Shown here piece by piece: positions 2,664 through 21,405 of a stretch of DNA of 21,609 bases. This DNA is from a virus. The position numbers were made by a program, and so were the translations under genes. Each line of letters starts with the position of its first letter. Within the stretch, counting starts at the first letter, position 1. The stretch lies in IMG/VR virus record IMGVR_UViG_3300042988_001357, positions 1-21,609 of that record. The stretch is one strand, 5' to 3'. Under the pieces are notes generated by a model. That model made no database searches. It saw only the letters and a list, made by a program, of their open reading frames with translations, and was not told the DNA's origin.

Positions 2664-3136
2664 ATTCGGGCTTTGTACGTGAACCTCACTTTATCCGCGG
2701 TCGTCTTCGACACGGTGGGGCTCACGAGCGTGCGCATGAGGATGGAGCCGCCCGGCGTCGTCTTCGCGTCCATGAGGACGACCTCCTTGATGGCCGGCGC
2801 CGAGAGCGAACCACCACCCGAGGGGTAGGACACGACCCACTTGTACGTGCGGCCCGCGTCCACCGTGCGGGAGTCCACCGTGCGGATGTTCGCCGTGGCG
2901 AGCGCCGTCTTCACGTTCGTGTCGCCGGAGCCGGCTGCCGCCGAGTTCTTGCCGAGGCGCCAGAAGCGGAACTGCTTGGTGGTGGTCCCGATGGCCATCT
3001 TCCACAGGCGCTTCTTGCCCACGTTGACGATGAGGTTCTTGTTCACCTGCGAGTGGATGACCTTCGGGCCCTCCGGGGTGTCCCGGATCACCTCGATGAG
3101 CACCTCACCGCCGATCAGCCGAATCTCGTCCTTCAT
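2657..3136 (-). CDS. Phage tail-associated protein (159 aa)
   Basis: The ATG at 3136 is preceded by GGAGA with a 7-base spacer, the strongest ribosome-binding site noticed in the left half, so it is preferred over an in-frame ATG at 3160. The gene overlaps the 3' end of the 593-residue gene by 32 bases. The product has an N-terminal segment IRLIGGEVLIEVIRD, then NKNLIVNVGKKRLW, a glycine/serine middle, and a beta-rich C-terminus with IKEVVLMDA and ILMRTLVSPTV. The order (charged beta start, KNLIVN-type motif, variable loop, LxRxxxSPxVxK end) is typical of small tail-fibre or tail-collar associated proteins as I recall them. No enzyme motif is present. Identity beyond virion protein is uncertain. 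Confidence 0.75.
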   Translation of the reverse strand: MKDEIRLIGGEVLIEVIRDTPEGPKVIHSQVNKNLIVNVGKKRLWKMAIGTTTKQFRFWRLGKNSAAAGSGDTNVKTALATANIRTVDSRTVDAGRTYKWVVSYPSGGGSLSAPAIKEVVLMDAKTTPGGSILMRTLVSPTVSKTTADKVRFTYKARIT

Positions 3137-4886: not shown

Positions 4887-5716
4887 TTCTGCCCCGGGCG
4901 CTCGGTGAACCGGAAGGACAGCCCCAGGCGCTTCAGCTCCTGGTTGAGGTCCGCGTTGCTCATGTCCTTGTAGCTGCGCGCCGGGCGCTGCTCCGTCGCG
5001 GGCTTGCGCGCCGGAGGGTTGCCCACGTCCGGCGGGGAGACGCGCACGTTGTGCACGGGGGGCTCTTCCTCCGCGGGAGCCTCCTCTTCGGCAGCTTCCT
5101 CCTCGGGGGCTTCCTCCTCTTCGGCCGCCGCGGCGTAGACCGGCTTCTCGTACGCGAGCGTGGCGAGCCACTCCTCGGGGTCGAACTCCTCCAGGTCCGC
5201 GTCGTCCATGCCCTGCACGTGCACCTGGAGGCGGTCGAGCGCGTCCTCCACCATGTCCGGGCGGATGTACTGGCTGGCGAGGCCAGTGAGCATGTTCTCC
5301 ATCTCGGTGACCACCGACTGCTGGTGCTGCTCTTCGAGACGCTGCTGCGCCTCTTGGAGCGCACGGAGTGCTTCCTCGCGGTCCTCACGCGCGCGCTCGA
5401 TCTCGCTCATCTCCTCGCGGCGGCGCTTCTCGTGCTCCTCTTCGGCCTGCTTCAGCCGTGCGAGTTGCGCGCGGGCCTCGTCGAGGTCCTCCACACCGAG
5501 AAGCTCACGCACCACCTGGCGCTGGCCTGCTCGCTTCGCCTGCTCGATGCGGCGCGAGAGCCACTCCCGGTCCTCGCCCTGGGGCGGCGTCTCGGGAGCC
5601 TGGGCGGGGGGTTGTGCCGCCGCAGGGGGACGTGCCTCCGGCGCCGGGGCCGGAGTGACGCCGAGCTTCTCGGCGAGTTGCTGGGTTTCGGGCGCGGAAG
5701 GGGTCTGGTCGGACAT
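4883..5716 (-). CDS. Scaffold-like coiled-coil protein (277 aa)
   Basis: The chosen ATG at 5716 gives a start of MSDQTPSAPE; another in-frame ATG at 5728 adds four residues. Residues 15-50 are Pro/Ala-rich. Residues about 55-150 form a long charged coiled coil (runs such as EEEHEKRRREEMSEIERARED). Residues about 155-195 are helical and acidic (QYIRPDMVEDALDRLQVH). Then comes a Glu/Ala-rich disordered stretch and a basic C-terminal helix ending RLGLSFRFTERPGQK. This is the profile of phage capsid scaffold proteins: extended coiled coil, acidic linker and basic C-terminal capsid-binding helix. The gene sits between two sugar-enzyme genes rather than directly before a recognisable capsid gene, which is unusual and lowers confidence. 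It overlaps the next gene by GTGA. Confidence 0.65.
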   Translation of the reverse strand: MSDQTPSAPETQQLAEKLGVTPAPAPEARPPAAAQPPAQAPETPPQGEDREWLSRRIEQAKRAGQRQVVRELLGVEDLDEARAQLARLKQAEEEHEKRRREEMSEIERAREDREEALRALQEAQQRLEEQHQQSVVTEMENMLTGLASQYIRPDMVEDALDRLQVHVQGMDDADLEEFDPEEWLATLAYEKPVYAAAAEEEEAPEEEAAEEEAPAEEEPPVHNVRVSPPDVGNPPARKPATEQRPARSYKDMSNADLNQELKRLGLSFRFTERPGQK

Positions 5717-5731
5717 GCCCCGGAGCATGTC
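5712..5731. repeat. Inverted repeat covering the scaffold gene start
   Basis: GACATGC (5712-5718) and GCATGTC (5725-5731) form a perfect 7-bp inverted repeat with a 6-base spacer, and they cover both candidate start codons. The outer GACAT/ATGTC half-sites match those of the palindrome at 11242-11265. It could be an operator or a start-region hairpin that limits translation. With ATG codons in each arm, chance is possible. Confidence 0.35.
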
Positions 5732-5744
5732 ACGGAACGCGCGT

Positions 5745-6566
5745 TCAGAAAAGTGAGAGGATCGCGCTCGCTGGTGCGCTGAGCACCACTTCGGCCATGT
5801 GCCCCACGGGCTGGAGGGACATCCACACGCGCTCCCCCGCCCACGTCCTCACGCGGTAGCAGAAGGAGAAGTCCTCGCTGAACTGCACGTCGTCCACACG
5901 CATCAGGTCGAACAGAGCCGCCGTGGGGTGGTCCCCCTCGACCGTCGAGTCGATGAACTGCTGCCCGACCTGGAAGGCTTGGTCGGTGAGGGTCTGGAGC
6001 AGCCCCCGCTGGATGAGGGCGCAGCCGAGGCCGATGCTCGTGATGGTGATGGCCGAGGTCCCGTCGTGCTCCCCCAAGCCCGGGGGCACGTTCCCGGTCG
6101 CCATGCACTTGCCTGCGTAGTGCACCCACTGGAAGGCGCCCTCCACAGCGTGCTTCCCCGCCCGCGCGGCAGCCGTGGCCCCGTTCCAGTCGATGAGACG
6201 CCGGGGGTAGGTGCTGGCCACGAAGGGCTTGTTCGCGGCGATCATCGAGGCCACGGCCGCCGTGTTCACCACGACGTCCACGTCGAGGAAGAGGAGGTGC
6301 GTCCCGTCCCCTTCTAGGAACTTGCGCACGATGCGCGAGCGGGCGCGCACGATGTCCCGAGGCACCATGAGGTCCTCGGAATCGATGAGGGTGTCCACCG
6401 GAAGGCCGCCGTTCCGTGCATCCTCGTAGAGCTGCTGGCGCGCGAGGTGGCAAGTCGCAGGGATGCTGCCCCCGACCGGGGTGGCGATGACGAGCTTCAT
6501 GGGGGGCACCATCACGGTGGACTCCGGAGGATCGATGACAACGCGTGCGGGGATCGTGGGGATCAC
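5745..6566 (-). CDS. GT-A-like glycosyltransferase (273 aa)
   Basis: The GTG at 6566 shares GTGA with the stop of the preceding gene. An internal ATG at 6500 giving MKLVIATPVGG is a plausible alternative start. The protein shows the GT-A pattern: MKLVIATP opening beta strand, DIVRARSRIVRKFLE, then LLFLDVDVVV with DxD at residues about 95-97. NKPFVASTYPRR follows, then SEDFSFCYRVR near 230 and VGHM near 254-257, which fit the later acidic and metal-binding histidine sites of this group. It probably transfers a nucleotide-sugar moiety in the cytoplasm; donor and acceptor cannot be read from sequence. It lies directly downstream of another glycosyltransferase and upstream of the scaffold-like gene, so it belongs to the sugar-modification cluster. 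Confidence 0.85.
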   Translation of the reverse strand: MIPTIPARVVIDPPESTVMVPPMKLVIATPVGGSIPATCHLARQQLYEDARNGGLPVDTLIDSEDLMVPRDIVRARSRIVRKFLEGDGTHLLFLDVDVVVNTAAVASMIAANKPFVASTYPRRLIDWNGATAAARAGKHAVEGAFQWVHYAGKCMATGNVPPGLGEHDGTSAITITSIGLGCALIQRGLLQTLTDQAFQVGQQFIDSTVEGDHPTAALFDLMRVDDVQFSEDFSFCYRVRTWAGERVWMSLQPVGHMAEVVLSAPASAILSLF

Positions 6567-7390
6567 GGACGGATGAAGTGGGCCGCGTACTTGTGGTCGA
6601 GGGGGATGCGCTCGTAGCGCTCGATGAGGCGCAGAGCTTCACGCTGCTCGAACCCGCACATGAGCAAGCGCCACACGAGCCCCCGGTAGAAGAGGCCGAG
6701 GTGCGGCGCGTTGTGTAGGTCCCACATGTTCCGCTGTTCCATGAACTCCGGGCTGAGCCCGAGCGGGCGGTCCACACCCATGTCCTCCCACGTCACCTGC
6801 GGGCGCCGGTACAGGTGCCGGTCGTTGCCGTAGGTGCTCTTCAGGTCCACGTCGTGGTCGATGATGGTCGGCGTCGGGTGCCAGACCACACGATCCGTGG
6901 CCATCGCGAAGAGGCCGATGAGGGTGTCCTCGCTGGTGTTCTCGACCGTCCTCTCCGGCAGCTTGGCGCGCCACGCGAGGAACTCCTTCAGCACCGTGCG
7001 GTGGAGGACGTACCCCACACCGATCATGCCGTCGTTCGTCGAGTACCAGTGGATGCCCTGGCGTGCGAGCGTGCGCGCGGCAGGGTGGGCGCAGTGCAGG
7101 CCGATGATGGCGGGCTCCTCGTGCACGGAGAGCATGGCGTGCAGGGTGGCCCAGAAGTTCGGTGCAATCCGCACGTCGTCCTGGAGGTACAGCACCCAGT
7201 CCGCATCCTGCTCGACGCCCCACTGCCATTGGAGCGCAGCCCACACCCAGTTGGGCGCCTTCACGGTCATGTGCAGCGGTTCACCCACCCAGTCCGGGCG
7301 GTGAAGCCGCAGGCTGTCATCGAGCGCGTGGAACGACGCCACCCGTGAGGGGATGTGCGGCGCGTGCGTGATGCAGTAGGCGACCCTCAC
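6563..7390 (-). CDS. Glycosyltransferase-like protein (275 aa)
   Basis: The GTG at 7390 shares GTGA with the stop of the methyltransferase gene, and this places the conserved-looking opening VRVAYCITHA at the N-terminus. Much longer upstream readings in this frame lie opposite real codons of the neighbour and were discarded. Residues about 62-77 read DADWVLYLQDDVRIAP, the typical GT-A acidic site (QDD). Later features include NTSEDTLIG (151-159), HPTPTIIDHDVD (171-182) and a C-terminal helical part rich in Arg and Trp. The pattern resembles small phage or bacterial glycosyltransferases of the GT-A/GT25-like type. Its four-base overlaps with genes on both sides indicate coupled expression with a methyltransferase and a second glycosyltransferase. 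Sugar and acceptor are unknown. Confidence 0.8.
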   Translation of the reverse strand: MRVAYCITHAPHIPSRVASFHALDDSLRLHRPDWVGEPLHMTVKAPNWVWAALQWQWGVEQDADWVLYLQDDVRIAPNFWATLHAMLSVHEEPAIIGLHCAHPAARTLARQGIHWYSTNDGMIGVGYVLHRTVLKEFLAWRAKLPERTVENTSEDTLIGLFAMATDRVVWHPTPTIIDHDVDLKSTYGNDRHLYRRPQVTWEDMGVDRPLGLSPEFMEQRNMWDLHNAPHLGLFYRGLVWRLLMCGFEQREALRLIERYERIPLDHKYAAHFIRP

Positions 7391-8007
7391 GGCTTCCTCC
7401 AGTGGAAGTAGGTCTTCTCGATGCGGAGGCTCGACCCTTCGTACCGGAGCTTCTCGTCCACGGCCTTCACCACACCGGAGAACTCCGACGTGTAGTCGTG
7501 TCCGCCGAGGATGCCCCCACGCTTCACGAGCGGCACCCAGTCCTCGATGTCGCGCTTCACCTCGGGGTAGGTGTGGTTCGCGTCGATGAAGACGAAGTGC
7601 AGCGACTCCGGCGCGAAGAGGTTCTTCGCCTGCCACGAGTAGAGGCGCAGCGGGTGCACGGCTTCCAGCACCGCCGGGTCGAACTCGCGCATCTTCACCA
7701 CGAAGGCGTTGAACGGGCCGCCCTGCTCGCGCTGCCACTTCGTGTACTCGCCTCCCCACCCCGGCGTGTCGATGGGTGCGCGCGTGTCCGGAGCTTGGCC
7801 GTGCCAGTCGTCGAACCACGGGTCCACCGTGTAGAAGGTGATCTGCTTGCCCGACTCGATGATCTTCTGGCCCATGTAGGCCGTGGACCTGCCGAACGCA
7901 GCGCCCAGCTCCACGAATACGTCGCCGCTCTTCGCGGTGGCGATGGCGTGGTCGTAGAGATCCTCGAAGTCGCACCAGCCGGGGGGACGCTCACCTTGCA
8001 CCATCAT
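7387..8007 (-). CDS. TylF-like class I SAM methyltransferase (206 aa)
   Basis: Tandem ATG codons at 8007 and 8004 overlap the stop of the upstream FkbM gene; the first gives an ATGA overlap. Residues about 28-45 contain VFVELGAAFGRSTAYMG, the SAM-binding glycine loop. LHFVFIDANHTYPEVKRDIEDW near 135-155 and GGILGGHDYTSEFSGVVKAVDE near 162-183 match the TylF/macrocin O-methyltransferase style (Methyltransf_24-like), where the D-x-x-H and GGHDY positions bind metal and substrate. Members of this group O-methylate sugars or small molecules. Its place among two FkbM methyltransferases and two glycosyltransferases points to sugar O-methylation. The product is of normal single-domain length with no membrane segment. 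Confidence 0.87.
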   Translation of the reverse strand: MMVQGERPPGWCDFEDLYDHAIATAKSGDVFVELGAAFGRSTAYMGQKIIESGKQITFYTVDPWFDDWHGQAPDTRAPIDTPGWGGEYTKWQREQGGPFNAFVVKMREFDPAVLEAVHPLRLYSWQAKNLFAPESLHFVFIDANHTYPEVKRDIEDWVPLVKRGGILGGHDYTSEFSGVVKAVDEKLRYEGSSLRIEKTYFHWRKP

Positions 8008-8651
8008 CGCCTCCACACTTGGTTGCCGAACAGAACGTGCGCCGTGCCGTAGGTCCGACCCTCGAACCCGAAGCCCCGCACGCACGTGAAGCCTTGCTCG
8101 TGAAGCACGTGCTCCGCGAGGACGCGGTTCGGGATGCCGTGCCACTCCAGCACCACCCCGCGCACGTCCTTCCAGTGCTTGTAGCGGGTGAGGAAGTGGC
8201 ACTCGGCGCCCTCGCAGTCGAGTTTCACGATGTCGAACGGGCCGATGGTGGCCGGGTGCACGAGGTCCACGTCGCACACCTTCCGCGTGGCGCCATGGTG
8301 CATGGTCGTCGTGAAGCCGGGGTGGTCGTGGCCGAGGTCGTGCAGCTCTCCGCGTGCAGTCTCGCCGATGCCCGCGCGGATGAGCGTGCACCGGTCCTGG
8401 TACCCGAACGCGCGCACGTTCTCCTCGTAGAGGTCCCAGTGCGCCGGGTTCGGCTCGTAGCTGTCGATGGTGGCCTCGGGCCAGTACCGGCAGGCCCAGA
8501 TCGCGAAGGGGGCGCGGCTGCCTCCCACGTCGAGGATGCGGCGCGCTGGGATGGCGCGCACCTCCGAGTGCTCGTACTCCCCCTCGAACACCTCCGTGGC
8601 CGTTGCGATGCGGTCCACTTCCTCCTGCGTGAACAGGTTGTCGTAGATCAC
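8004..8651 (-). CDS. FkbM-family methyltransferase, second copy (215 aa)
   Basis: The GTG at 8651 shares GTGA with the stop of the first FkbM gene; an upstream in-frame reading only mirrors that gene. Residues about 38-50 read RRILDVGGSRAPFAIWA (SAM-binding loop, variant of VDVGANxG). EPNP near 63 is the acidic adenosyl site. FDIVKLDCEGAECHFL near 145-160 is the FkbM signature K(L/V)DxEGxE. VVLEWHG follows. FkbM enzymes O-methylate hydroxyl groups, commonly on sugars and polyketides. The protein is clearly related to its upstream neighbour, so the pair arose by duplication or joint acquisition. The first glycine motif is altered (GGSRAPFA), but the catalytic-side motif is intact. Confidence 0.87.
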   Translation of the reverse strand: MIYDNLFTQEEVDRIATATEVFEGEYEHSEVRAIPARRILDVGGSRAPFAIWACRYWPEATIDSYEPNPAHWDLYEENVRAFGYQDRCTLIRAGIGETARGELHDLGHDHPGFTTTMHHGATRKVCDVDLVHPATIGPFDIVKLDCEGAECHFLTRYKHWKDVRGVVLEWHGIPNRVLAEHVLHEQGFTCVRGFGFEGRTYGTAHVLFGNQVWRR

Positions 8652-9361
8652 GGGGCCTCCTTCGGCAGCACGTAGCTGTCCGTTCGGTGGTCGTACTCGA
8701 CGGCCGTGCGCGCCCAGATGCACTGCCCGAGGTTGATGCGGTCGTGGGTGCACCGGATGAGGCGCAGGCCCTTGTCCTCACACAGGGCGTTCAGCTCCAT
8801 GAAGTCCCTCTCGCGGTGCCACTCGAACATCACGAGACGGAGGCTGTCCCAGTGCAGGTAGCCGCGGAGTACCTCCAGCTCGACGCCCTCGGCGTCCACC
8901 TTGAGCACGTCCGCCGGGGGCAGCGCGCGGGGATGCAGGGTGCGCACCTCGATGCTCTCTGCGCCGATGGGCGTGGCCGCGCGGAGGTCTTCCTGCGTCG
9001 TGTTCCAGCCCCAGTCCTCGCCGTCCCCCACACCGAGGAGGATGGTCGGCGCCGGCAGGGTGGTCACAGCCACGGGGTACACCTTCGACCCCGGTGGTGC
9101 GTTCGCCGCACAGAGCTGGGCCGCGAGCGGGTGCGGCTCGTAGCAGTCGATCCAGGCGTAGGGCCAGCGGAGATAGGCCCAGACCGCGAAGGCGCCCACG
9201 TTCGCGCCCACGTCCACCACGCGGCGGATGTACGGGTCTACGTCGGGGAGCGGGGGGTACCAGTATTCCCCGGGCTGGGCGAGCACCTTGGAGACACATG
9301 CCTCCAGGGGCTTCGGGTAGTAGAAGGTCGTTCCGTGGATGTCGTGCGCGAGCAGCTCCAT
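8648..9361 (-). CDS. FkbM-family methyltransferase, first copy (237 aa)
   Basis: An ATG at 9361 opens the gene; it is the first of the sugar-enzyme group after a strong terminator. Residues about 46-62 read RRVVDVGANVGAFAVWA, the SAM-binding motif. YEPHP near 74 is the acidic site. DVLKVDAEGVELEVLRG near 151-167 is the FkbM signature, and LVMFEWHRERDF follows. The protein is of usual family length. FkbM methyltransferases act on hydroxyls of sugars or polyketides. With a second FkbM enzyme and a TylF-like enzyme directly downstream, several sugar positions may be methylated in sequence. No promoter was clear between the terminator and the start, so how the cluster is transcribed is unresolved. 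Confidence 0.9.
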   Translation of the reverse strand: MELLAHDIHGTTFYYPKPLEACVSKVLAQPGEYWYPPLPDVDPYIRRVVDVGANVGAFAVWAYLRWPYAWIDCYEPHPLAAQLCAANAPPGSKVYPVAVTTLPAPTILLGVGDGEDWGWNTTQEDLRAATPIGAESIEVRTLHPRALPPADVLKVDAEGVELEVLRGYLHWDSLRLVMFEWHRERDFMELNALCEDKGLRLIRCTHDRINLGQCIWARTAVEYDHRTDSYVLPKEAP

Positions 9362-10639: not shown

Positions 10640-10858
10640 TCAGCCGCCGTTCAGCTTGAACGGCTTCGAGGGCGCCGGCACACGCTGCGCAGGCGGAACG
10701 GGCTTCACGATGACGCCGCCGTCCGGGATGGACTTGGGGGCCACGCGCTGCTCGGGGGAGCCGGACGGCTGCGAGGCCGGGCCGGCGGGGGGCTTGATGA
10801 GGCCCGGGGACGCGCCCGCGCCGTCCGAACCCTGGCCGTTTCCGAAGGGGTTGCTCAT
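10640..10858 (-). CDS. Proline/glycine-rich small protein (72 aa)
   Basis: The ATG at 10858 shares ATGA with the stop of the HTH gene, which argues for coupled translation. The 72-residue product starts MSNPFGNGQGSDG and is dominated by Pro, Gly, Ser and Ala (for example IKPPAGPASQPSGSPEQ), ending KPFKLNGG. It has no cysteine and no membrane segment, and is probably disordered. It could be a partner of the HTH protein or a small virion accessory given the structural genes downstream. I do not recognise a family. Confidence 0.6.
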   Translation of the reverse strand: MSNPFGNGQGSDGAGASPGLIKPPAGPASQPSGSPEQRVAPKSIPDGGVIVKPVPPAQRVPAPSKPFKLNGG

Positions 10859-11187
10859 GCCCCCTCTTCTAGCACGGGCCGCCGAGGGATGTCCCTCGCG
10901 CTCTGCTCGAAGACCGCGGCGTCCTCCCGCGAGCGGGGACGCAGCTCCAGGGTCACTGCCAGCCCGAGCACCTGGAGAAGCTGGACGAGTGTCCGTACGT
11001 TCGGGATCTGCTTGCCCTGCTCCACGTAGCAAACCGCCCCCGGAGATACCCCCGAGAGCTGGGCAAGCTGCTTGATGCGCAGACCCTTCGCCTGGCGGAA
11101 GACACGCACCGCGTGCCCGATCTCCGCCGCCATGGACTGCTCGCTCGGGGTGTACCGCTGCACACGTGCGACTCGTCCCTCGGCCAT
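10855..11187 (-). CDS. HipB/Xre-like helix-turn-helix regulator (110 aa)
   Basis: The chosen ATG at 11187 gives MAEGRVARVQRYTPSEQ. Residues about 23-75 are a Cro/C1-type HTH: IGHAVRVFRQAKGLRIKQLAQLSGVSPGAVCYVEQGKQIPNVRTL, with the recognition helix near SPGAVCYVEQG. The following LLQVLGLAVTLELRPR resembles the dimer strand region of HipB-type regulators. No HipA-like kinase lies beside it, so this is probably a stand-alone repressor rather than a toxin-antitoxin pair. It is divergent from two plus-strand genes, and a palindrome between them is a natural operator. No Shine-Dalgarno precedes the ATG, and a weak -10 (TACACT) ends only 6 bases upstream, so a leaderless mRNA is possible. Confidence 0.87.
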   Translation of the reverse strand: MAEGRVARVQRYTPSEQSMAAEIGHAVRVFRQAKGLRIKQLAQLSGVSPGAVCYVEQGKQIPNVRTLVQLLQVLGLAVTLELRPRSREDAAVFEQSARDIPRRPVLEEGA

Positions 11188-11193
11188 GCACAA

Positions 11194-11224
11194 AGTGTAG
11201 CTCACAAGCTGCCAAAAAAGTGAA
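11194..11224 (-). promoter_or_regulatory. Possible weak promoter of the HTH gene
   Basis: Minus-strand TTCACT (11219-11224) and TACACT (11194-11199) are separated by 19 bases, with the ATG 6 bases after the -10. Both boxes are imperfect and the spacing is long. It is listed because the intergenic region is short and the placement matches the other two leaderless-type promoters. Confidence 0.3.
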
Positions 11225-11232
11225 CTGCGGGC

Positions 11233-11261
11233 TGGACAATCGACATGGGTACAATTACCTA
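11233..11261 (+). promoter_or_regulatory. Possible promoter of the plus-strand gene pair
   Basis: TGGACA (11233-11238, five of six to TTGACA) is followed after 17 bases by TACCTA (11256-11261), with the ATG at 11269. A better -10 match, TACAAT at 11250-11255, lacks a -35 at normal distance. Either choice lies inside the palindrome at 11242-11265, so a bound protein would block it. Confidence 0.4.
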
Positions 11262-11265
11262 TGTC
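11242..11265. promoter_or_regulatory. Candidate operator for the HTH regulator
   Basis: GACATGGGTA (11242-11251) and TACCTATGTC (11256-11265) are inverted repeats with one mismatch in ten, separated by CAAT. A 24-bp palindrome in a divergent HTH/target intergenic region is the classic layout of a repressor operator. Binding by the adjacent HTH protein is inferred. Confidence 0.6.
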
Positions 11266-11268
11266 CCC

Positions 11269-11610
11269 ATGAGCACCGCAAGCACCCCCTACGACCGCCT
11301 CTTCGTCGCGCTCAAGCTCCTCGCCCACTCGGCGACGCAGGTGCACGAGTACGACCCCACCAACGTGGCCGAGACGTACGGCGCGCCGGTGTCGAACTAC
11401 GTGATGCGCCTCCTCGCCCTCCGCGCATGCGCCGAGCTGGCCGCGAAGGAGACGGGGATCTTGCTCGACGACCTGCTCACCGCCACGGAGGCACCGGCCC
11501 ACATCCGGGAGGCCGTGCAGAACGCCAAGCGCGTCACCGAGGAGAACGTCGCCACGGCGCACACGAACTTGCTCGGTGCCCTCACCCCTGCCGAAGAGAA
11601 GACCAACTAG
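11269..11610 (+). CDS. Helical hypothetical protein of the switch island (113 aa)
   Basis: Two in-frame ATGs exist, at 11245 and 11269. The second is preferred because the first lies within the palindrome and promoter region; neither has a Shine-Dalgarno. The product (MSTASTPYDRLFVALKLLAH...) is largely alpha-helical, with a hydrophobic stretch VMRLLALRACAELAAKETGILLDDLLTA and a polar C-terminus. It has no membrane segment and no motif I recognise. It is the first gene of a two-gene plus-strand unit, divergent from the HTH gene and opposite to all surrounding structural genes, so it is probably expressed under separate control. An early, lysogenic or antirepressor-type function is conceivable but not shown. 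Confidence 0.7.
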   Translation: MSTASTPYDRLFVALKLLAHSATQVHEYDPTNVAETYGAPVSNYVMRLLALRACAELAAKETGILLDDLLTATEAPAHIREAVQNAKRVTEENVATAHTNLLGALTPAEEKTN

Positions 11611-11612
11611 CC

Positions 11613-11857
<245 letters not shown>

Positions 11858-11861
<4 letters not shown>

Positions 11862-13786
11862 GGCTTCCGCCACTGGTACGCGGGCTGGAGTGTGAGCTTC
11901 AGCTTGCGCGCCATGTAGCGGAAGCTGGGGTCGTCCTTGTCGAGGCGTACCTCACCCGACCAGGACCCCATGCGCGAGAGGATGCGCTTCCCCGCGTGCC
12001 AGTAGTCCGGCTCGTCTGCGCCAGCACCCGCGTCGTGGCGAGCCTTGTCCAAGGCCTTCTTGGTGGGGAACTTCTCGCCCACACCACGCTCCGGCTCCCC
12101 CTCACGCTCAGGGCGCCAGCTCCGCGGCATGTGGAAGTTCGCGAGGTACCAGGGGTGCTTCGTGATGACCCGCGCGTACCGCCGAGCGCGCTCAGGCGCC
12201 ATCCCGTACTTGTTCCGCAGGTGGCCCGTCGCGTACTCCTCCGCGTCCTCTTGGCACGTGGTGTCCGGGTCCCAGTCGAAGCCGAAGGACGCCCACGTGT
12301 ACCAGCCGTTGTCGAGGGCGGCGGTGACGCGCACCTTCTTCACGCCCATCTTCTGGTAGTCGTTGATCATGCGGCGGAAGACCTCTTTGCCTTGCCCGCT
12401 GCCGCGGTAGCCCTCCGCCACCTCGAAGTGCGAGTGGTACACCGACCACACGCCACGCTTCCTGGTGAAGATGCGGTTGATGTACCCCACACGACGACCC
12501 TCGTCGTCCTCCAACCGGGCGTAGACGGTGATGTTGTTGCCGCCGGGCTCCACAGAGATGGTGATGTCCCCTGCGTGGTACGTGGGACCCTCACACCACG
12601 CGCGCACGCGCTCCTCCGTGAGGAACTCCGCGGGAGGGGTGAAGCCCTGCGCGCGGTACTCCGCGTTGGCACGCGCCATCTTCTCGCGCGTCTCACGCGC
12701 AGCACGTTCTCCCCGTAGGCGGTCAGCACGACTCGCAACGGAGCGAACCATGCGATCCATGAGGGCGGCCCGCACGTTCGGTGGGAGCGTGAGGTGCGTC
12801 GTCTCGCGGAGGAACGCCTCCCACTTCTTGTTCACTCGCGGAGCTTCATCACGGCCGAAGCGCTTCTCCCACATGTCACGCGAGAGGGAGTGGGCAGCCT
12901 CGCCAGCTTCCCAGGAGTTGTACTCACCTTCCCCCGACGCGCGCTCCACTGCCTTCACCATGGCGGCGAGGGAAGGGTGATCGTGCAAGCGCTCGTCCCA
13001 CACGGCACGAGCGTGCCTCTCACCGTAGTCGTCCCAGTGCCGGGTGGTTTCGTCGATGCGCTCGCGCATAGAAGCGCTGCGCAAGACCGCATCCGGATCT
13101 ACGGGCAGCTTCTTGGTGGGGTCGTCTGGGTCGAAGATGTGCGTGGGGATGTGCGGCGGGAGCGCGTTCTCCGACTGCATCGACAGGAGGTCGAGCACGG
13201 GGACAGCGCTCAGGTGGTCACGCGCCAACTGGTCGTGGACCGCGAGGATGCGGTCCAGCCTAGCCACCACGGCCGCGCGCATCGCAGGGGACCACCCGCG
13301 CATGCTCTGCGGGTCGGCTGCGATGTCCCGCCACATCGCCCACGGCGGGCGATTGTTGCGGTAGTTGACCCGCTGTAGCCCCTGCATGGCGGCGTCCACG
13401 CTCTCGGGCGTGATCTTCTCGTTCAGGTCGAAGAGCGCCCCCTGCGTGGTGGGGTTCTCGATGTGGAGCTTGCGGAGTCGGAGAGCCTCTTGGAGACGCT
13501 CGCGTGCGGCGTGCGCCTTCTCCAGGTTGCGCTCCGACTCGGCGCTGTTCGCGTAGTAGGGCCAATCCGTTGCGCCCTCGATCTGCCCGAGGCCCGGGTC
13601 GTCGTGCAGACGCCACACGGTGCCGATCGCACGTACACCCGCGATGGCCTCGCGCACCCGGCGGTTGTCGGTGGCGCGCTCCGTCTGCCACCGCCGTAGC
13701 TCGGGGAGGTAGCGACGACCACCTCCCGGCTGCTGCACGTAGGCGCCGCCACGCGGTCCGACTTGGATGTCCTTGCCGCTTGCCAT
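11858..13786 (-). CDS. GNAT-like domain protein with N-terminal basic motif, paralogue B (642 aa)
   Basis: The ATG at 13786 forms TGATG with the stop of its paralogue; an upstream in-frame ATG would only read across that gene. Residues about 7-33 read IQVGPRGGAYVQQPGGGRRY then LPELRRW, like the short basic adaptor motif (GPRGGxY...) of chloroviruses and some phage proteins. Residues about 40-395 are helical and charged, with no recognised domain. Residues about 405-505 resemble a GNAT acetyltransferase: ITVYARLEDDEGRRVGYINR, FEVAEGYRGSGQGKEVFRRM (acetyl-CoA loop near 459-466) and ALDNGWYTWASFGFDW. A C-terminal part holds HPWYLANFHMP and EPDYWHAGKRIL. The role is unknown; an injected or virion-associated enzyme is possible because MuF-neighbour genes can encode such proteins. 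Confidence 0.8.
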
Positions 13787-15588
13787 CACGCCGCCTTCGT
13801 CTCGTCCCCGCCCAGCTTGTAGAGCTTCTTCACGCGCTCCCACGACGGGTCACCAGGCGTGCGGAGACGGATGATCCCCTTCCAATAGAGCTTGCTGTTG
13901 TGCGCCCACTGCCCGCTGTTCAACTGCGTGGACACACCCAGAAGGACACGCTTGCCCGTGTGCCACCAATCGGGGTCGTCCTTCTTCTTCATGGACTGCT
14001 GGATGCGGCGCACGCTCTCCATGTCGGTGGTCGTGCTGAGCTTGTAGCTGGAACCCTCATCAAGCCCAGGCTCGTGCCAGTCCGCGAGCGTCCACGGGTG
14101 GACGCACACCTCCCTCGCCTTGGCGATGGCGTTCACCGGCGTCCACCCACGCTTCTGCAAGTAGGAGGACACGTACTCGACGGCCTTTTCGCGGCTCTCG
14201 CTCCCCTTCCAGTCGAAGCCAAGCTTCGCCCACGCGTACGGGCCGGTGTCGAGGCCCGCTGAGACAGTGACCTCGCGAACACCAGCGTCGAGGTACTGGT
14301 GGAGGGAGTTGTCCATCATCTTGTAGGCCACGCCGCCGCCCTGTGCGCGCTCTTCGAGCCTGAAGTACGCGTGGTAGACCGTCCGCTCGTGGGGATCGTA
14401 GTGGCGTTCGACCTGGCCCACGGCGCGCCCGTTCTGCACGAGAATCGCCTCGTAGACTTCTTCGCCGCCATCGTGGCGGTACGTGTAGTCGGAGAGGTGA
14501 ATACCCGTCCCAGCGAACACCGCTTCAGCGCTCGTCTCGCTGAGAAGGCCCGAGCTACCCGGACCGTCACCCCCGTCGCTCTCCTCCTCGTAGGCCTCGA
14601 CCCGCTCACGGTGCACACGGTCGATGATGTCGTCGATGCGCGACTGCACTTCCTCCTGGATGCGGTTCTCGAAGTCGTTGTCCACGCCGCGCGTGCCGCC
14701 CGACATCTCCGAGATCATCTCGTAGATGGCGTCGTGGGAACCAAGCACGTCGGCGATGGTGGGACGGCTGGAGGAGTCTCCCTCCCAGTGCTCCGAGTAC
14801 CACTGGTTGGTCTGCTCCTCGATGCTCGCCGCATCGCGCCACCGCCAGTTGGACTCCATGGTGTGCTGCACCTCGCGGTCCACCTGGTCCGCGTAGACCT
14901 CGCGCGCGTGCGCGAGAACCTCCCGCCGAACAATGCCCTTCGCCCACCGGCCGGGAAGCGTCTTCGGCTTCTCGGCGCCCTCCTGCATCTCGCTCTCGTA
15001 GAGGTCGGTGAAGCTGGAGTAGTCGTCGTCGGCCAGCTCCAAGGCTTGCGCCGCGCGGTGAAAGTTGTCCCCCACCCAGCCCTTCACGATCTCGCGCGCC
15101 TGGGGGATCGTCGCCGCCAGCTCCCGGTACTTCGCGAAGAGGATGCCGCGTCGGGGGTCCCCCGGGGAGAACCGCGCCGCCATCGCGTGCAGCTCCTTCA
15201 TGTCGCGCACGTTCTCGATGTTCGTGCCGGGGAGGACCGGAGGCGTGACGAGGGGGTCCGGCCGCGGCGGCCCCACGGACACGTCCATGGGGAGCACGCC
15301 CTGGAGCACCTCGGGGCCCCTGCTCACCGCCTCGCGGCGCGCACGCAGGGCTTCCCGCAGCCGCGTCTCCGTGGGGGCTTCCGGGTCGTCTTCGAGGCCG
15401 TCGAACCGCTCCAGCCGCAGCGCAGCCATGCTGTCGCGGATCTCCTGGTTCTGGGCGTGCCGCACCTGCGGGTTGCGGCGCATGGCCTGCCAGCGTCGCA
15501 TCTCCGGGAGGTAGCGCTTGCTGCCGCCAGGCCCCTCGACGTACGCGCCCCCAAGGGGCCCAATCTGCACCGGCTTGTCGTTGGCCAC
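13786..15588 (-). CDS. GNAT-like domain protein with N-terminal basic motif, paralogue A (600 aa)
   Basis: The start is a GTG at 15588, 34 bases after the 83-residue gene. Residues about 7-33 read VQIGPLGGAYVEGPGGSKRY then LPEMRRW, nearly the same as in the next gene. A long charged helical region follows (about 40-355), different from its paralogue. Residues about 365-462 are GNAT-like: EAILVQNGRAVGQVERHY, AYFRLEERAQGGGVAYKMMDN (a GGGVA loop in place of GSGQGK) and AGLDTGPYAWAKLGFDW. HPWTLADWHEPG and DPDWWHTGKRVLLG follow, matching the paralogue in order. Tandem duplication is clear. The weaker acetyl-CoA loop suggests altered or lost catalysis in this copy. Function is unknown. Confidence 0.8.
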   Translation of the reverse strand: MANDKPVQIGPLGGAYVEGPGGSKRYLPEMRRWQAMRRNPQVRHAQNQEIRDSMAALRLERFDGLEDDPEAPTETRLREALRARREAVSRGPEVLQGVLPMDVSVGPPRPDPLVTPPVLPGTNIENVRDMKELHAMAARFSPGDPRRGILFAKYRELAATIPQAREIVKGWVGDNFHRAAQALELADDDYSSFTDLYESEMQEGAEKPKTLPGRWAKGIVRREVLAHAREVYADQVDREVQHTMESNWRWRDAASIEEQTNQWYSEHWEGDSSSRPTIADVLGSHDAIYEMISEMSGGTRGVDNDFENRIQEEVQSRIDDIIDRVHRERVEAYEEESDGGDGPGSSGLLSETSAEAVFAGTGIHLSDYTYRHDGGEEVYEAILVQNGRAVGQVERHYDPHERTVYHAYFRLEERAQGGGVAYKMMDNSLHQYLDAGVREVTVSAGLDTGPYAWAKLGFDWKGSESREKAVEYVSSYLQKRGWTPVNAIAKAREVCVHPWTLADWHEPGLDEGSSYKLSTTTDMESVRRIQQSMKKKDDPDWWHTGKRVLLGVSTQLNSGQWAHNSKLYWKGIIRLRTPGDPSWERVKKLYKLGGDETKAA

Positions 15589-17337: not shown

Positions 17338-17366
17338 ACCTTACCACGACACGGGTGTCATGTCAA
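17338..17366 (-). promoter_or_regulatory. Sigma70-type promoter inside the operon
   Basis: Minus-strand TTGACA (17361-17366, perfect consensus) and TAAGGT (17338-17343, first two and last bases match) are 17 bases apart. It overlaps the stop codon of the MuF-like gene and points to the 164-residue gene and the small genes after it. The ATG lies 8 bases after the -10. Confidence 0.55.
17348..17359. promoter_or_regulatory. Candidate operator within the promoter spacer
   Basis: GACAC-GG-GTGTC is a perfect 12-bp palindrome between the -35 and -10 boxes. A second inverted repeat, TACCC (17321-17325) and GGGTA (17333-17337), surrounds the start codon. The half-site GACA(C/T)GGGT is shared with the palindrome at 11242-11265, so the same regulator might bind both. 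Confidence 0.45.
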
Positions 17367-18385
17367 GCTGCGTCGTCTTCAGCCGGCGCCTCGTAGAGGC
17401 CCTCCAGACCCGGGGACATGATGGGCGGACGCGAGGGCGGGGGACGCTTCTTCGACCCCTTCTGCATCCACCGCTGGATGCACATCCCCCCGGGGAGCGC
17501 GCGCAGCTCCGCCGGCAGTGGCCCCCACGAGAGGCGCCAGGACACGATCGTCTCGCGGTCGTTCGGGCGCCCGGGCGGGTTCATGTAGAACACGGGCAAG
17601 CCCAAGTGGTTGCGGCACTCGAAGGGCTCGTCGAGGCGACGCACCTGACCGTGGACGTAGTAGCTGTCCCACGAGGTGCGGTCGTCGAAGGTGGCGACCA
17701 GCACCTTCACCAGGTCGCCGAACTCCTCCTGCATCTCGTTCTGCACGGCGGCCTGGCCGGCGTTGAGCGCCCCGAGCATCTCCGTCCGGACGATGCGCTC
17801 CGCCCAGTACCGCGGCTTGCCCTCCAGGAACGGGCTCCGCTCCGTGAGCAAGTCCACGGCCTCGTCGTAGTTCATGTTCGTGAGCACGGCGGTCTGGAGC
17901 ACCTGCTCGAACTCACCGATGGCGCCGAACCCGTAGCGCTGGAGCACGCCCCCATCCCCCTGGCTCGCGCGCATCCGCAGAAGGGTGGACTCGGCCCCGC
18001 GGTACGCCATGTCGAAGAGGGCTGCTTCGTCGAGCGCGAGGGTGCCCACCTCCATGGCGTTCATCCACTGGGTGGCGTTCCGTGCTGCGAACCACGCCGC
18101 GCCCCGCGCGTAGAGGTTCCAGCTCGACGCCAAGTCGAGCTGCACCTGAGCCACGGCGTCCTGGATGGCCGCACGCGTCCCTGCGGCCTGCACGACCGTG
18201 AAGCTCTCCGGGGCAGCGTCCCCCATGGCGGCCTGTGCGGCCTCGATGCGTGAGGTGAGCACGCCCTGAGCACGCGTGAGCACTCGCTCCGCGTGCTTGG
18301 GGCCCACCACGTTCACGAACCTCCGCGCGGCGGCGCGGTTGCGCGCCAGGACCTGCTTCGCGGCTGGCTTCAGCTTCTCAGTCAC
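17363..18385 (-). CDS. MuF/SPP1 gp7-like minor head protein (340 aa)
   Basis: A GTG at 18385 overlaps the small membrane-protein gene by 8 bases; an in-frame GTG at 18406 would give 347 residues. The N-terminal 190 residues are helical. Residues about 199-210 read VRTEMLGALNAG, then ATFDDRTSWDSYYVHGQVRR (231-250) and NPPGRPNDRE (269-278). This is the MuF head-morphogenesis layout RTE...N.A, (L/F)DDRT...HG and PP.RPN.R. The usual second cysteine-type positions are absent. The tail is Pro/Lys-rich and then acidic. MuF-type proteins sit on or near the portal and are injected or needed for head assembly. Location two to three genes after the portal agrees with this. Confidence 0.85.
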   Translation of the reverse strand: MTEKLKPAAKQVLARNRAAARRFVNVVGPKHAERVLTRAQGVLTSRIEAAQAAMGDAAPESFTVVQAAGTRAAIQDAVAQVQLDLASSWNLYARGAAWFAARNATQWMNAMEVGTLALDEAALFDMAYRGAESTLLRMRASQGDGGVLQRYGFGAIGEFEQVLQTAVLTNMNYDEAVDLLTERSPFLEGKPRYWAERIVRTEMLGALNAGQAAVQNEMQEEFGDLVKVLVATFDDRTSWDSYYVHGQVRRLDEPFECRNHLGLPVFYMNPPGRPNDRETIVSWRLSWGPLPAELRALPGGMCIQRWMQKGSKKRPPPSRPPIMSPGLEGLYEAPAEDDAA

Positions 18386-18515
18386 GGCGCTTCTTCGGAC
18401 GCTCACGCCGCTGGCGCTTGTCCTCCTGGTACTCGACCACGCCCCAGATCGCGACGACGCCCACCACGAAGAGGATGGCCCCCACCGCCATGGCGGCCTG
18501 GATGATGCGGTCCAT
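18378..18515 (-). CDS. One-helix small membrane protein (45 aa)
   Basis: The ATG at 18515 forms TGATG with the stop of the Arg/Pro-rich gene. The product begins MDRIIQAAMAVGAILFVVGV and continues VAIWGVVEYQEDKRQRRERPKKRRD. Residues about 6-28 are one hydrophobic segment, followed by a strongly basic tail, so an N-out/C-in orientation is expected. The length and form fit small phage membrane proteins of holin-accessory or spanin-accessory type, but location next to head genes gives no direct lysis link. Function is unknown. Confidence 0.65.
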   Translation of the reverse strand: MDRIIQAAMAVGAILFVVGVVAIWGVVEYQEDKRQRRERPKKRRD

Positions 18516-19137: not shown

Positions 19138-21405
19138 TCACTCCATCCAGTCTTCGTCGCGGGACTGCCAGTCCTTCTCCTCGTCTTCAGGGCTGGGCGG
19201 GCCTTCACCCGGAGCGCCCGGGGGCGGCATCTGCCCACCGGCCATGTCCTCCATGCCGGGGAACATGCCTCCGCCAGGGCCGCCCATGCCCATCTGCGCC
19301 TGCTGCTGGGCCATCTGCTTCTGCTCGTTGTCCACGCGCTGCCACTCGGCGTCCGGGTCGATGCCGAGGGACTTGGCGGCCTTCTCGACGGCCGTGCGCT
19401 GGCTCACCACGGGCTTCCCACCCGTGGCCGTGCTGAGGGTCTGAAGCTTGCCCGCGAGGTCGTCTGGCGTGTCCGGGAAGAACTCGGGCCACTTCACCTC
19501 CAGGAACCGCGCCTCACCCGGCACGTGGTCGCGCGCGACGGCGACCGGCTCGCCCTTGGAGCTGGGCTCCTGCATGACGCGAGGCGGGAGGTCGAAGACC
19601 ACCGTCACGACCACCCGGGCCTCGTCCGCCTTCGCCTCGCGGTCGGCGAGGATCATGTCGGCCTCGGTGGGCTCTGCTCCCGCGCCGCCCTCCAGCTCAT
19701 TCCCCGCGTCGTCCTCGGCGCCCATGTCGGCGCCCGCGCCCGCGGCAGCGGGGTCCTCCTCGTCCTCCGGGGGCATGTCCTCCTGCGCGTCGGGGTCGCC
19801 CACCGCCGGCACGGGGTCCTGATCCGCCTCCGGGTCCTCGGCGGACGGAGGCATGTCCTCCGGGTCCTCCGCCGTCACGTCCTCGACGTCCTCGCCCGCG
19901 TTGATGCGGCGCATCGCCTCCTTGAGCACGTCGTCGGGGCTGGGGCCCTTCTCGCGAGCGAGGAGCGCCTCCAGGGCAGACATCTGCTGCGTGGACTCGG
20001 CGTCCTCGCCGCCCATCTGCGGCGACGGCTGCCCCTCCAAGCCCTCCGCGAGGGACGTGGGCATCTGGGCAGCGGTGACCTTCTTGGCCGCGTCCACGAG
20101 GCGCTGGCAGTAACGAAGCTGCTGCTCGAAGAGCCGCGTCAGCCCGAGGCCGTACTGCTCCCGGATGACCGACGCCTTGGACGTCATCGGCCGGTAGATG
20201 GTGCGGAGGGCGACTGCGCTCATGCCCTGGGCAGCGACCTCGTTCGGGTCGGCCAAGATACACTGGGCGCTGTTGAGTACCTGCTTGGTGCTCTCCTGTA
20301 GGCGTGCGATGCCTACTTGGACAGACGTTCCTGCTAGTTCGAGGTACGTTGCGCTGCCACCTTTGCCTGTGATGATGGCACTGTCGCTACCTTTTTTGAC
20401 ACTCTGATTGGCTGCCCACTCGGCGATGTCCATGTTCAGCACGAGGGTCGGGTCGAGGTTGAGCCCGAGGGAGCGGCTGATGAGGCTGTTCAGCACGTCC
20501 AGCATCTCCATGCTGTCTTCGAGCCCGTCGTAGTCCGGCAGGCCGTCCGGGCTGTCGTTCGTGGGGATGTTCTGGATCCACACGAAGTGGCACTCCCGGT
20601 GCTCCGGCTCGATCTGGTCCTTCGCCTCCGTGTCGTGCCAGGAGATGTTCTCCTCGTCGATCTCCCACTCCGGCTCCTTGCCGTCCTCGTAGGGCACGAC
20701 CTTGAAGGGGATGTCGGCCACGTCCGTCCAGTCCCGGCGGTGCCAGAACCACTTGTCGATGACCTTCCGCTCGCGCTCGTCGAAGACCGGCTCCGTGAAC
20801 CGGTACACCTCGGTCACGTGGCGCGGGATGAGCTGGTCCCGGTCCTCCCACTCGTGCACGTAGAGGTGCTTCGCGTTGTGCACACGGCAGAAGGGGCGCC
20901 CGTGCTTGAAGCCCCAGGACATGCCCACGGTGCCGCAGGAGCCGCCCAGCGTGCGCGCGAGGATGAGGCGGGTGTGCATCCGCTGCGCCTGCGACAGCGC
21001 CTGCACGAAGGCCTCGGAGTCGGGGTCGCCGAACGCCAGAATCTCGGGGAAACCTCCCTCCAGGATGATCGCCGTGAAGCTGTTCACGATGAGCCGCCCC
21101 ACGCGGTAAGGGTCCGTGGGGCGACGCTGGCGCAGGGGGACGTGGAAGGGCGTCTTGTTCTGGCCGAGGTACGGGCGGTACGCGTTCGAGAACGCGAGGG
21201 AGGAACCGGAGCCCTGGCCCACCCAGTTGCCGTCGAAGTCCGCGGCCTTCCAGTTGTGGCTCGTGCCCTTGTAGATGCTCTCCCAGTAGTCGATCTGGCG
21301 GCAGCGCTCGCCGAACATGAAGTTCGCAGCGCTCCACTGGTTGTCGGCCAGGCCGTAGGCGCTGGAACCGGTGACCCTCATGGTGCCAGGGGCGAAGACG
21401 CTCAT
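19138..21405 (-). CDS. Phage portal protein (755 aa) with long acidic insertion
   Basis: The ATG at 21405 gives MSVFAPGTMRVTG. The sequence follows SPP1/Gp6-like portals: an N-terminal RQIDYWESIYKG and NPYRVGR-like region (PTDPYRVGRLIVNS near 96-109), FVWIQNIPTNDSPDGLPDYDGLEDSMEMLDVLNSLISRS near 274-312, then DSAIITGKGG, YLELAGTSVQVGIARLQESTKQ and a stem helix near 380-445. Residues about 449-597 are an acidic, Pro/Ala-rich, probably disordered insertion. After it a typical portal C-terminal part resumes (EVKWPEFFPDTPDDLAGKLQTLSTATGG near 636-663). The tail (700-755) is Gly/Met/Pro-rich. The dodecameric portal forms the DNA entry channel. At 755 residues it is longer than the usual roughly 450-550. 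Confidence 0.9.
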   Translation of the reverse strand: MSVFAPGTMRVTGSSAYGLADNQWSAANFMFGERCRQIDYWESIYKGTSHNWKAADFDGNWVGQGSGSSLAFSNAYRPYLGQNKTPFHVPLRQRRPTDPYRVGRLIVNSFTAIILEGGFPEILAFGDPDSEAFVQALSQAQRMHTRLILARTLGGSCGTVGMSWGFKHGRPFCRVHNAKHLYVHEWEDRDQLIPRHVTEVYRFTEPVFDERERKVIDKWFWHRRDWTDVADIPFKVVPYEDGKEPEWEIDEENISWHDTEAKDQIEPEHRECHFVWIQNIPTNDSPDGLPDYDGLEDSMEMLDVLNSLISRSLGLNLDPTLVLNMDIAEWAANQSVKKGSDSAIITGKGGSATYLELAGTSVQVGIARLQESTKQVLNSAQCILADPNEVAAQGMSAVALRTIYRPMTSKASVIREQYGLGLTRLFEQQLRYCQRLVDAAKKVTAAQMPTSLAEGLEGQPSPQMGGEDAESTQQMSALEALLAREKGPSPDDVLKEAMRRINAGEDVEDVTAEDPEDMPPSAEDPEADQDPVPAVGDPDAQEDMPPEDEEDPAAAGAGADMGAEDDAGNELEGGAGAEPTEADMILADREAKADEARVVVTVVFDLPPRVMQEPSSKGEPVAVARDHVPGEARFLEVKWPEFFPDTPDDLAGKLQTLSTATGGKPVVSQRTAVEKAAKSLGIDPDAEWQRVDNEQKQMAQQQAQMGMGGPGGGMFPGMEDMAGGQMPPPGAPGEGPPSPEDEEKDWQSRDEDWME

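What the first reader, a model, noticed from the sequence alone, without database searches (positions are those of the whole stretch)
11858..15588. Tandem paralogous GNAT-like proteins with a chlorovirus-type basic motif
Two large adjacent proteins share, in the same order, an N-terminal GP(L/R)GGAYV...RYLPE(L/M)RRW motif, a GNAT-like region, (A/G)LD.G.Y.WA..GFDW, HPW.LA..H.P and (D/E)PD.WH.GKR.L. Their middles differ. Only the 642-residue copy keeps a GSGQGK acetyl-CoA loop; the other has GGGVA. The set of C-terminal motifs after GNAT is one I cannot assign. Near MuF-like genes such proteins may be carried in the capsid. This is a candidate new family, possibly an injected acetyltransferase with a diverged partner.
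Basis: partly seen in the sequence, partly recalled or inferred. Interest (0 to 1): 0.8.

Follow-up and report, generated by a model that had tools for sequence, protein, structure and literature searches.

The report
Tandem head-linked phage acetyltransferase-like effectors
Two neighbouring phage genes encode proteins that each end in the same acetyltransferase-type module, which many other phages fuse to capsid proteins and some soil bacteria build into giant secreted-toxin-like proteins, so they are probably enzymes that the virus carries in its head and delivers into the bacterium at infection.

Summary
A (11861-13786, -, 642 aa) and B (13789-15588, -, 600 aa) are adjacent genes sharing about 34 N-terminal and about 250 C-terminal residues (BLASTP 4e-27). 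The C-terminal part is a GNAT domain plus a C-terminal extension (AlphaFold2 pLDDT 82.6; Foldseek best hits NatD, Gcn5). The 'unassignable' C-terminal motifs are this family's conserved extension. B has not lost the acetyl-CoA loop: its Q-G-G-G-V-A is the family's standard form. The family is widespread: 126 IMG/VR contigs encode it. In 50 records examined it is fused to MuF, minor-capsid-2 or portal proteins in 17 and lies within 8 kb of one in 20. In Microbacterium phage Jera it stands where sister phages carry an ADP-ribosyltransferase on the same head protein. In Actinomycetota it sits in giant proteins, some with type VII (WXG100) N-termini. Best reading: an exchangeable head-carried effector module; A and B are stand-alone versions near the phage's own MuF gene. 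Packaging, catalysis and target are inferred. No Pfam or NCBIfam family specific to this GNAT was found. The 'chlorovirus' N-terminal motif is sub-threshold and was found nowhere else.

The parts
13786..15588 (-). Gene B, 600 aa, GTG start
   Evidence: ORF and coding-like GC3 0.90; stop overlaps the start of A
11858..13786 (-). Gene A, 642 aa, ATG start at 13786 (the 661-aa ORF call starts 57 bases upstream)
   Evidence: ORF and GC3 0.85; paralogue of B
15487..15588 (-). B N-terminal module, residues 1-34 (GPLGGAYV...RYLPEMRRWQ)
   Evidence: 46% identical to that of A; three short strands predicted, pLDDT about 75
13685..13786 (-). A N-terminal module, residues 1-34 (GPRGGAYV...RYLPELRRWQ)
   Evidence: PF08789 14.4 bits, below cut-off
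14500..15486 (-). B middle, mostly helical, not shared with A
   Evidence: low-confidence helices; poor alignment with A
12575..13684 (-). A middle, not shared with B
14194..14499 (-). B GNAT core, residues 364-465
   Evidence: held-out family profile 6e-23; AlphaFold2 region mostly 86-94 pLDDT; Foldseek GNATs
12266..12574 (-). A GNAT core, residues 405-507
   Evidence: held-out family profile 1.4e-29; AlphaFold2 pLDDT about 90; Foldseek NatD, Gcn5
14326..14343 (-). B acetyl-CoA loop Q-G-G-G-V-A
   Evidence: fits family consensus Q/R-G-x-G-x-A
12386..12406 (-). A acetyl-CoA loop R-G-S-G-Q-G-K
   Evidence: fits Q/R-x-x-G-x-G/A
12275..12301 (-). A family signature YTWASFGFD, residues 496-504
13789..14193 (-). 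B C-terminal extension (HPWTLA..., DPDWWHTGKRVL, W.G)
   Evidence: family-wide conservation
11861..12265 (-). A C-terminal extension (HPWYLA..., EPDYWHAGKRIL, W609-S-G611)
   Evidence: G599 51/54, K600 45/54, W609 53/54
17363..18406 (-). MuF-like head protein without a C-terminal effector (context)
   Evidence: Phage_Mu_F 1.7e-4, phrog_3517 9e-7
19138..21405 (-). Portal protein (context)
   Evidence: phrog_64 portal 3.7e-6

Best explanation
A and B are two stand-alone, head-associated effector proteins of a tailed phage. Each has a short lineage-specific N-terminal module, a divergent helical middle and a C-terminal GNAT acyltransferase module with a conserved extension. That module is a mobile, exchangeable effector module: in other phages it is part of MuF, minor-capsid-2 or portal proteins, in one case in the place that an ADP-ribosyltransferase holds in close relatives, and in Actinomycetota it is built into giant proteins, some with type VII (WXG100-like) N-termini. 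Proposed mechanism: the proteins are made late, enter or bind the head near the portal vertex, are ejected with the DNA, and transfer an acetyl group from host acetyl-CoA to a host macromolecule early in infection; the differing middles suggest different partners or targets. SHOWN: GNAT fold and intact family residues in both, family membership, recurrent fusion or linkage to head-vertex proteins, the exchange with an ADP-ribosyltransferase, the WXG100 link. INFERRED: packaging of A and B, ejection, catalysis, and target (protein somewhat more likely than aminoacyl-tRNA).
For: Held-out profile matches 1.4e-29 and 6e-23; GNAT fold; conserved CoA loop, R438, H451, GK and W. Head linkage: 17 of 50 records fused to MuF/minor-capsid-2/portal and 20 more within 8 kb; cultured examples Jera gp5, R7M minor head protein, Pseudomonas AIIMS-Plu-RaNi and Lucjan. 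Exchange: Jera GNAT versus PermaG ADPrib_exo_Tox 8e-24 on the same head protein; Jera and Milani 86% identical up to residue 430 and then unrelated. Four of the sampled carriers hold ART and GNAT in one ORF. WXG100_2 3e-12 on an Actinoplanes carrier, four more by iteration. In the window the genes follow portal and MuF on the same strand.
Against: A and B themselves are not fused to a head protein and no proteomics exists. Substrate and activity are unknown. The usual catalytic Tyr position appears to be Trp. 12 of 50 records show no recognised head gene. The relatives were collected with a signature pattern, so invariance of those residues is partly by construction.
Confidence: 0.62

Rival explanations
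1. Catalytically idle GNAT fold used structurally: A and B are minor head or vertex proteins whose GNAT-like module only binds virion proteins or CoA during assembly.
For: Frequent fusion to head proteins; Trp at the position of the usual catalytic Tyr (inference from spacing); strongly conserved extension of unknown role.
Against: CoA loop and a beta-4 His kept in nearly all members; replaced by an ADP-ribosyltransferase on the same head protein in sister phages; present in WXG100-type bacterial proteins that are not virion parts.
Confidence: 0.15
2. Non-packaged late enzymes: A and B are made late in the infected cell and modify host or virion proteins there, without being carried in the head.
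For: They are free-standing, at the end of the head-gene block and followed by methyltransferase- and glycosyltransferase-like genes, which could be a modification region.
Against: The same module is physically part of head proteins in 17 of 50 records and within 8 kb in 20; repeated fusion of an enzyme to the portal vertex is hard to explain without carriage.
Confidence: 0.15
3. Active plus inactive pair: A is the enzyme and B a diverged regulator or partner.
For: The two are coupled genes with a shared N-terminal module seen nowhere else; tandem copies recur in L008, L022, L026, L100.
Against: B's motifs are as complete as those of A; the tree does not join A and B (13% of bootstraps), A leaning weakly to Jera/L011.
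Confidence: 0.08

Closest known systems
MuF polymorphic toxins (Jamet et al. 2017, PMC5576092)
   Same: Head-protein body with exchangeable C-terminal effector; ADP-ribosyltransferases among the alternatives; the authors propose delivery with the DNA
   Different: A and B are stand-alone, not MuF-fused; the survey's main text lists no acetyltransferase
GNATs of phage polyvalent proteins (Iyer et al. 2017, PMC5512222)
   Same: GNAT domains in proteins predicted to be packaged and injected; one of the two families neighbours an ART domain, as in four carriers here
   Different: Alice gp113, exemplar of the second family, is not recognised by this family's profile (2.1 bits); the first family's exemplar could not be compared
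Phage T4 Alt (packaged ADP-ribosyltransferase)
   Same: Packaged protein-modifying enzyme acting at injection (described in PMC5512222)
   Different: Different chemistry and fold; packaging of A and B not shown
phiKMV-type Rac (phage GNAT acting on RNA polymerase alpha; PMC7824862)
   Same: Phage GNAT acting on a host protein
   Different: Not head-linked in the source read; sequence comparison with Rac not made here
phrog_25452 and phrog_27103 (unknown function), phrog_4611 (minor head protein)
   Same: phrog_25452 matches 38 of 57 carriers and both window proteins
   Different: Unannotated families; the match covers only the GNAT region in A and B
PBCV_basic_adap (PF08789)
   Same: GPRGG core of the N-terminal module
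   Different: 14.4 bits against a cut-off of 20.4, 13 residues, no hit in B

Membership tests
GNAT superfamily | GNAT fold | tested here: met
   AlphaFold2 and Foldseek for A and B
GNAT superfamily | Pyrophosphate loop Q/R-x-x-G-x-G/A | tested here: met
   A RGSGQG, B QGGGVA
GNAT superfamily | Acetyl-CoA binding and acyl transfer | not testable with these tools
   needs biochemistry
GNAT superfamily | Pfam Acetyltransf_1 over curated cut-off | tested here: inconclusive
   A 20.7 bits with its neighbours in the frame, at the cut-off, but 17.6 by hmmscan; B 18.3 and 15.1, below
Head-linked GNAT module family (this work) | Match to a profile built without the window proteins, seed signature masked | tested here: met
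   6e-19 and 4e-12
Head-linked GNAT module family (this work) | C-terminal extension with GK...W.G | tested here: met
MuF polymorphic toxin | MuF domain in the same protein | tested here: not met
   no MuF domain in A or B; MuF is a separate gene at 17363-18406
MuF polymorphic toxin | Effector domain exchangeable with known toxins on MuF bodies | tested here: met
   for the module, in Jera/PermaG; not for A and B themselves
Polyvalent-protein GNAT, Alice gp113 type | Sequence relation to gp113 | tested here: not met
   2.1 bits, E 5.6
Polyvalent-protein GNAT, ART-associated type | Sequence relation to BAR32501 | not tested
   sequence not found in the collections searched; ART+GNAT ORFs do occur in the family
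PBCV basic adaptor PF08789 | Curated score | tested here: not met
   14.4 against 20.4 bits; 12.5 bits
Virion-packaged injected effector | Presence in particles and transfer at infection | not testable with these tools
   needs proteomics and a translocation assay

The most novel reading that the evidence does not exclude
An unnamed acyltransferase effector family moves between two delivery machines, phage heads (on MuF, minor capsid and portal proteins, or as free proteins as here) and type VII-like secreted giants of Actinomycetota, and acetylates a host target, with Trp in place of the usual catalytic Tyr. It would be the acetyltransferase counterpart of injected ADP-ribosyltransferases such as T4 Alt.
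Probability: 0.4. Interest if true: 0.75.

Novelty: new variant of a known kind. Interest (0 to 1): 0.56.

Why it matters
It would give a function to a widespread phage protein family now labelled 'unknown function' or 'minor head protein', and add an acetyltransferase to the exchangeable cargo of phage head proteins. The Jera and PermaG phages (same head-protein body, GNAT versus ADP-ribosyltransferase tail, same laboratory host Microbacterium foliorum) make the question of what such cargo does directly testable. The same module in WXG100-type proteins suggests that phages and secretion systems draw on one pool of effectors.

Tried and rejected
Single-protein scans of viral contigs with A and with B found nothing. 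Phage tblastn with the portal found nothing. PADLOC gave no defence family. phmmer of A against PDB found nothing; a 54-sequence profile reached only weak GNAT hits. The N-terminal module was sought by DNA pattern and by alignment: 8 and 13 stretches, none a relative. Virion proteomics of related phages (JL/Shanette, R7M): paper not held or no hit. Alice gp113 as a relative: rejected. 'B lost its CoA loop': rejected. Milani's tail as an ADP-ribosyltransferase: suspected by eye, not supported by Pfam or PDB searches. Considered, not established: that A and B are simple duplicates (tree unresolved); that L-P-E in RYLPE(L/M)RRW is a T4-type prohead protease site (L-x-E is too short to test).

Full report
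OBSERVATION. The window is a 21,609-base IMG/VR virus record. On the - strand a block runs portal (19138-21405; phrog_64, 3.7e-6), a 208-aa ORF, MuF (17363-18406; Phage_Mu_F 1.7e-4; phrog_3517 9e-7), small ORFs, then B (13789-15588) and A (11861-13786). B's stop and A's start overlap. A and B align at both ends but not in the middle.

WHAT THE C-TERMINUS IS. Pfam Acetyltransf_1 matches both, weakly. Relatives were found through Microbacterium phage Jera gp5 and Exiguobacterium phage EalM-132 orf60. An alignment of the four led to 126 viral contigs carrying Y[TA]WA[KSR]xG[FY][DK]. A profile built without the window proteins recovers A and B at 1.4e-29 and 6e-23, and at 6e-19 and 4e-12 with that signature masked, so membership does not rest on the seed. 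AlphaFold2 with the family alignment gives a GNAT topology for A (pLDDT 82.6, pTM 0.80). In B's full-length model the same region scores mostly 86-94, while the middle is poorly predicted. Foldseek places A next to NatD and Gcn5 and B next to nourseothricin acetyltransferase, OrfE and RimL. TM-scores are modest (target-normalised about 0.4) because only the core aligns. The viral library's best matches to A include Bacillus phage JL and CP-51 proteins and a 'phage head morphogenesis domain' protein.

CONSERVED RESIDUES (A numbering). R438 51/54; H451 47/54 (N in 5) on beta-4; Q/R461-G462-x-G464-x-A/G466; A489 53/54; G599 51/54, K600 45/54, W609 53/54. Y496, W498, A499 and G502 are invariant, but partly by construction, because the search pattern contained them. 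By spacing, W498 takes the place of the usual catalytic Tyr (Y-x-x-x-G-F); this is inference. B keeps all of these positions, so it is not a loop-less partner.

CONTEXT ACROSS PHAGES. Among 57 carriers Pfam finds MuF in 11, minor-capsid-2 in 5, ADPrib_exo_Tox in 3 and portal in 1; NCBIfam finds the SPP1 gp7-type minor capsid protein in 12 and no family specific to this GNAT. With coordinates, in 50 records the GNAT is in the same ORF as MuF, minor-capsid-2 or portal in 17, within 8 kb of one in 20, farther in 1, and without a recognised head gene in 12, several of them short contigs. Isolated examples: Jera gp5; the R7M 'minor head protein' between portal and scaffold; Pseudomonas AIIMS-Plu-RaNi and Lucjan, where the GNAT precedes the MuF region.

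THE SWAP. Jera gp5 and Milani gp6 are 86% identical over residues 1-430 and then unrelated. Jera ends in the GNAT (96.6 bits); Milani's tail has no Pfam or convincing PDB match. The sister PermaG gp5, 69% identical to Jera over 1-367, ends in ADPrib_exo_Tox, 8e-24. Exchange of C-terminal cargo on one head protein is the hallmark of MuF polymorphic toxins (PMC5576092).

OUTSIDE PHAGES. 26 genome loci, mostly Actinomycetota. Many are giant ORFs of 1,500-3,600 aa. An Actinoplanes one begins with WXG100_2 (3e-12) and PPE-like regions; iteration finds the same N-terminus in L108, L094 and L106, and partial matches at locus edges in L092 and L096. In two Nocardia proteins (L087, L098) the GNAT and its extension form the very C-terminus. 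Actinomadura L105 looks by eye like a portal-GNAT fusion, and Glycomyces L100 has two consecutive GNAT-bearing proteins that look MuF-like (not profile-tested).

MECHANISM. The best-supported reading is an exchangeable acyltransferase effector carried with the phage head; A and B are stand-alone versions near a short MuF gene. Packaging of A and B, ejection, catalysis and target are inferred. A protein target is slightly favoured because PDB neighbours include N-terminal protein acetyltransferases (NatD, RimL) and because the module alternates with protein-modifying ARTs; aminoacyl-tRNA is a live alternative, since TacT1, a GNAT toxin (of the tRNA-acetylating kind, from general knowledge), is also among the structural matches.

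KNOWN OR NEW. GNATs in injected polyvalent proteins were proposed in 2017 (PMC5512222), so the kind is known. The Alice gp113 family is not recognised by this profile; the ART-associated family could not be compared. The main texts of the polymorphic-toxin catalogue (PMC3482391, first 300,000 characters) and the MuF survey (PMC5576092) do not mention GNATs or acetyltransferases; supplements were not searched. Hence 'new variant of a known kind'.

DUPLICATION. The shared N-terminal module argues for duplication or module reuse; the GNAT tree is unresolved (A+B together in 13% of bootstraps; A leans weakly to Jera/L011, 85/94). More than one GNAT copy per locus recurs in L008, L011, L022, L026 and L100.

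Noticed in passing
Carrier proteins: L017 aa 293, L044 aa 318, L019 aa 745, L027 aa 90, L034 aa 12, L050 aa 7, L055 aa 8, L063 aa 29, L020 aa 96: A short HPRDxxGRF-like motif recurs at the N-terminus or at domain junctions, in L017 between MuF and GNAT; other Gly-rich tags (GSGNFGHAGRPG, HLPGQHDQ..HG, GPRGG.[YF]) recur likewise. Possibly a packaging, linker or processing tag.
   Followed up: partly
L107, L108, L094, L106, L092: The GNAT module lies in giant actinobacterial proteins with a WXG100-like N-terminus.
   Followed up: partly
L117:3800-4447: Milani gp6 has a third, unassigned C-terminal tail on the same head-protein body as Jera and PermaG; it looks ART-like by eye but has no Pfam match.
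   Followed up: partly
window 3105-9361, - strand: A run of sugar- and methyl-transfer genes: methyltransferase plus glycosyltransferase with TPR (3105-5171), a glucosyltransferase-like ORF (6563-7975) and two FkbM-type methyltransferase-like ORFs (8004-8753, 8648-9361), perhaps for virion or surface glycan modification.
   Followed up: no
window 11614-11861, + strand: A small ORF facing A end to end, with a hydrophobic stretch followed by a run of about ten glutamines encoded by a CAG repeat.
   Followed up: no
window 10855-11562, - strand: HTH_31/HTH_3 regulator domain in an ORF just downstream of A.
   Followed up: no
L033:9198-15095: A contig with the GNAT gene next to MuF and five further ADPrib_exo_Tox matches in a row: an effector-rich head-gene region.
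   Followed up: no
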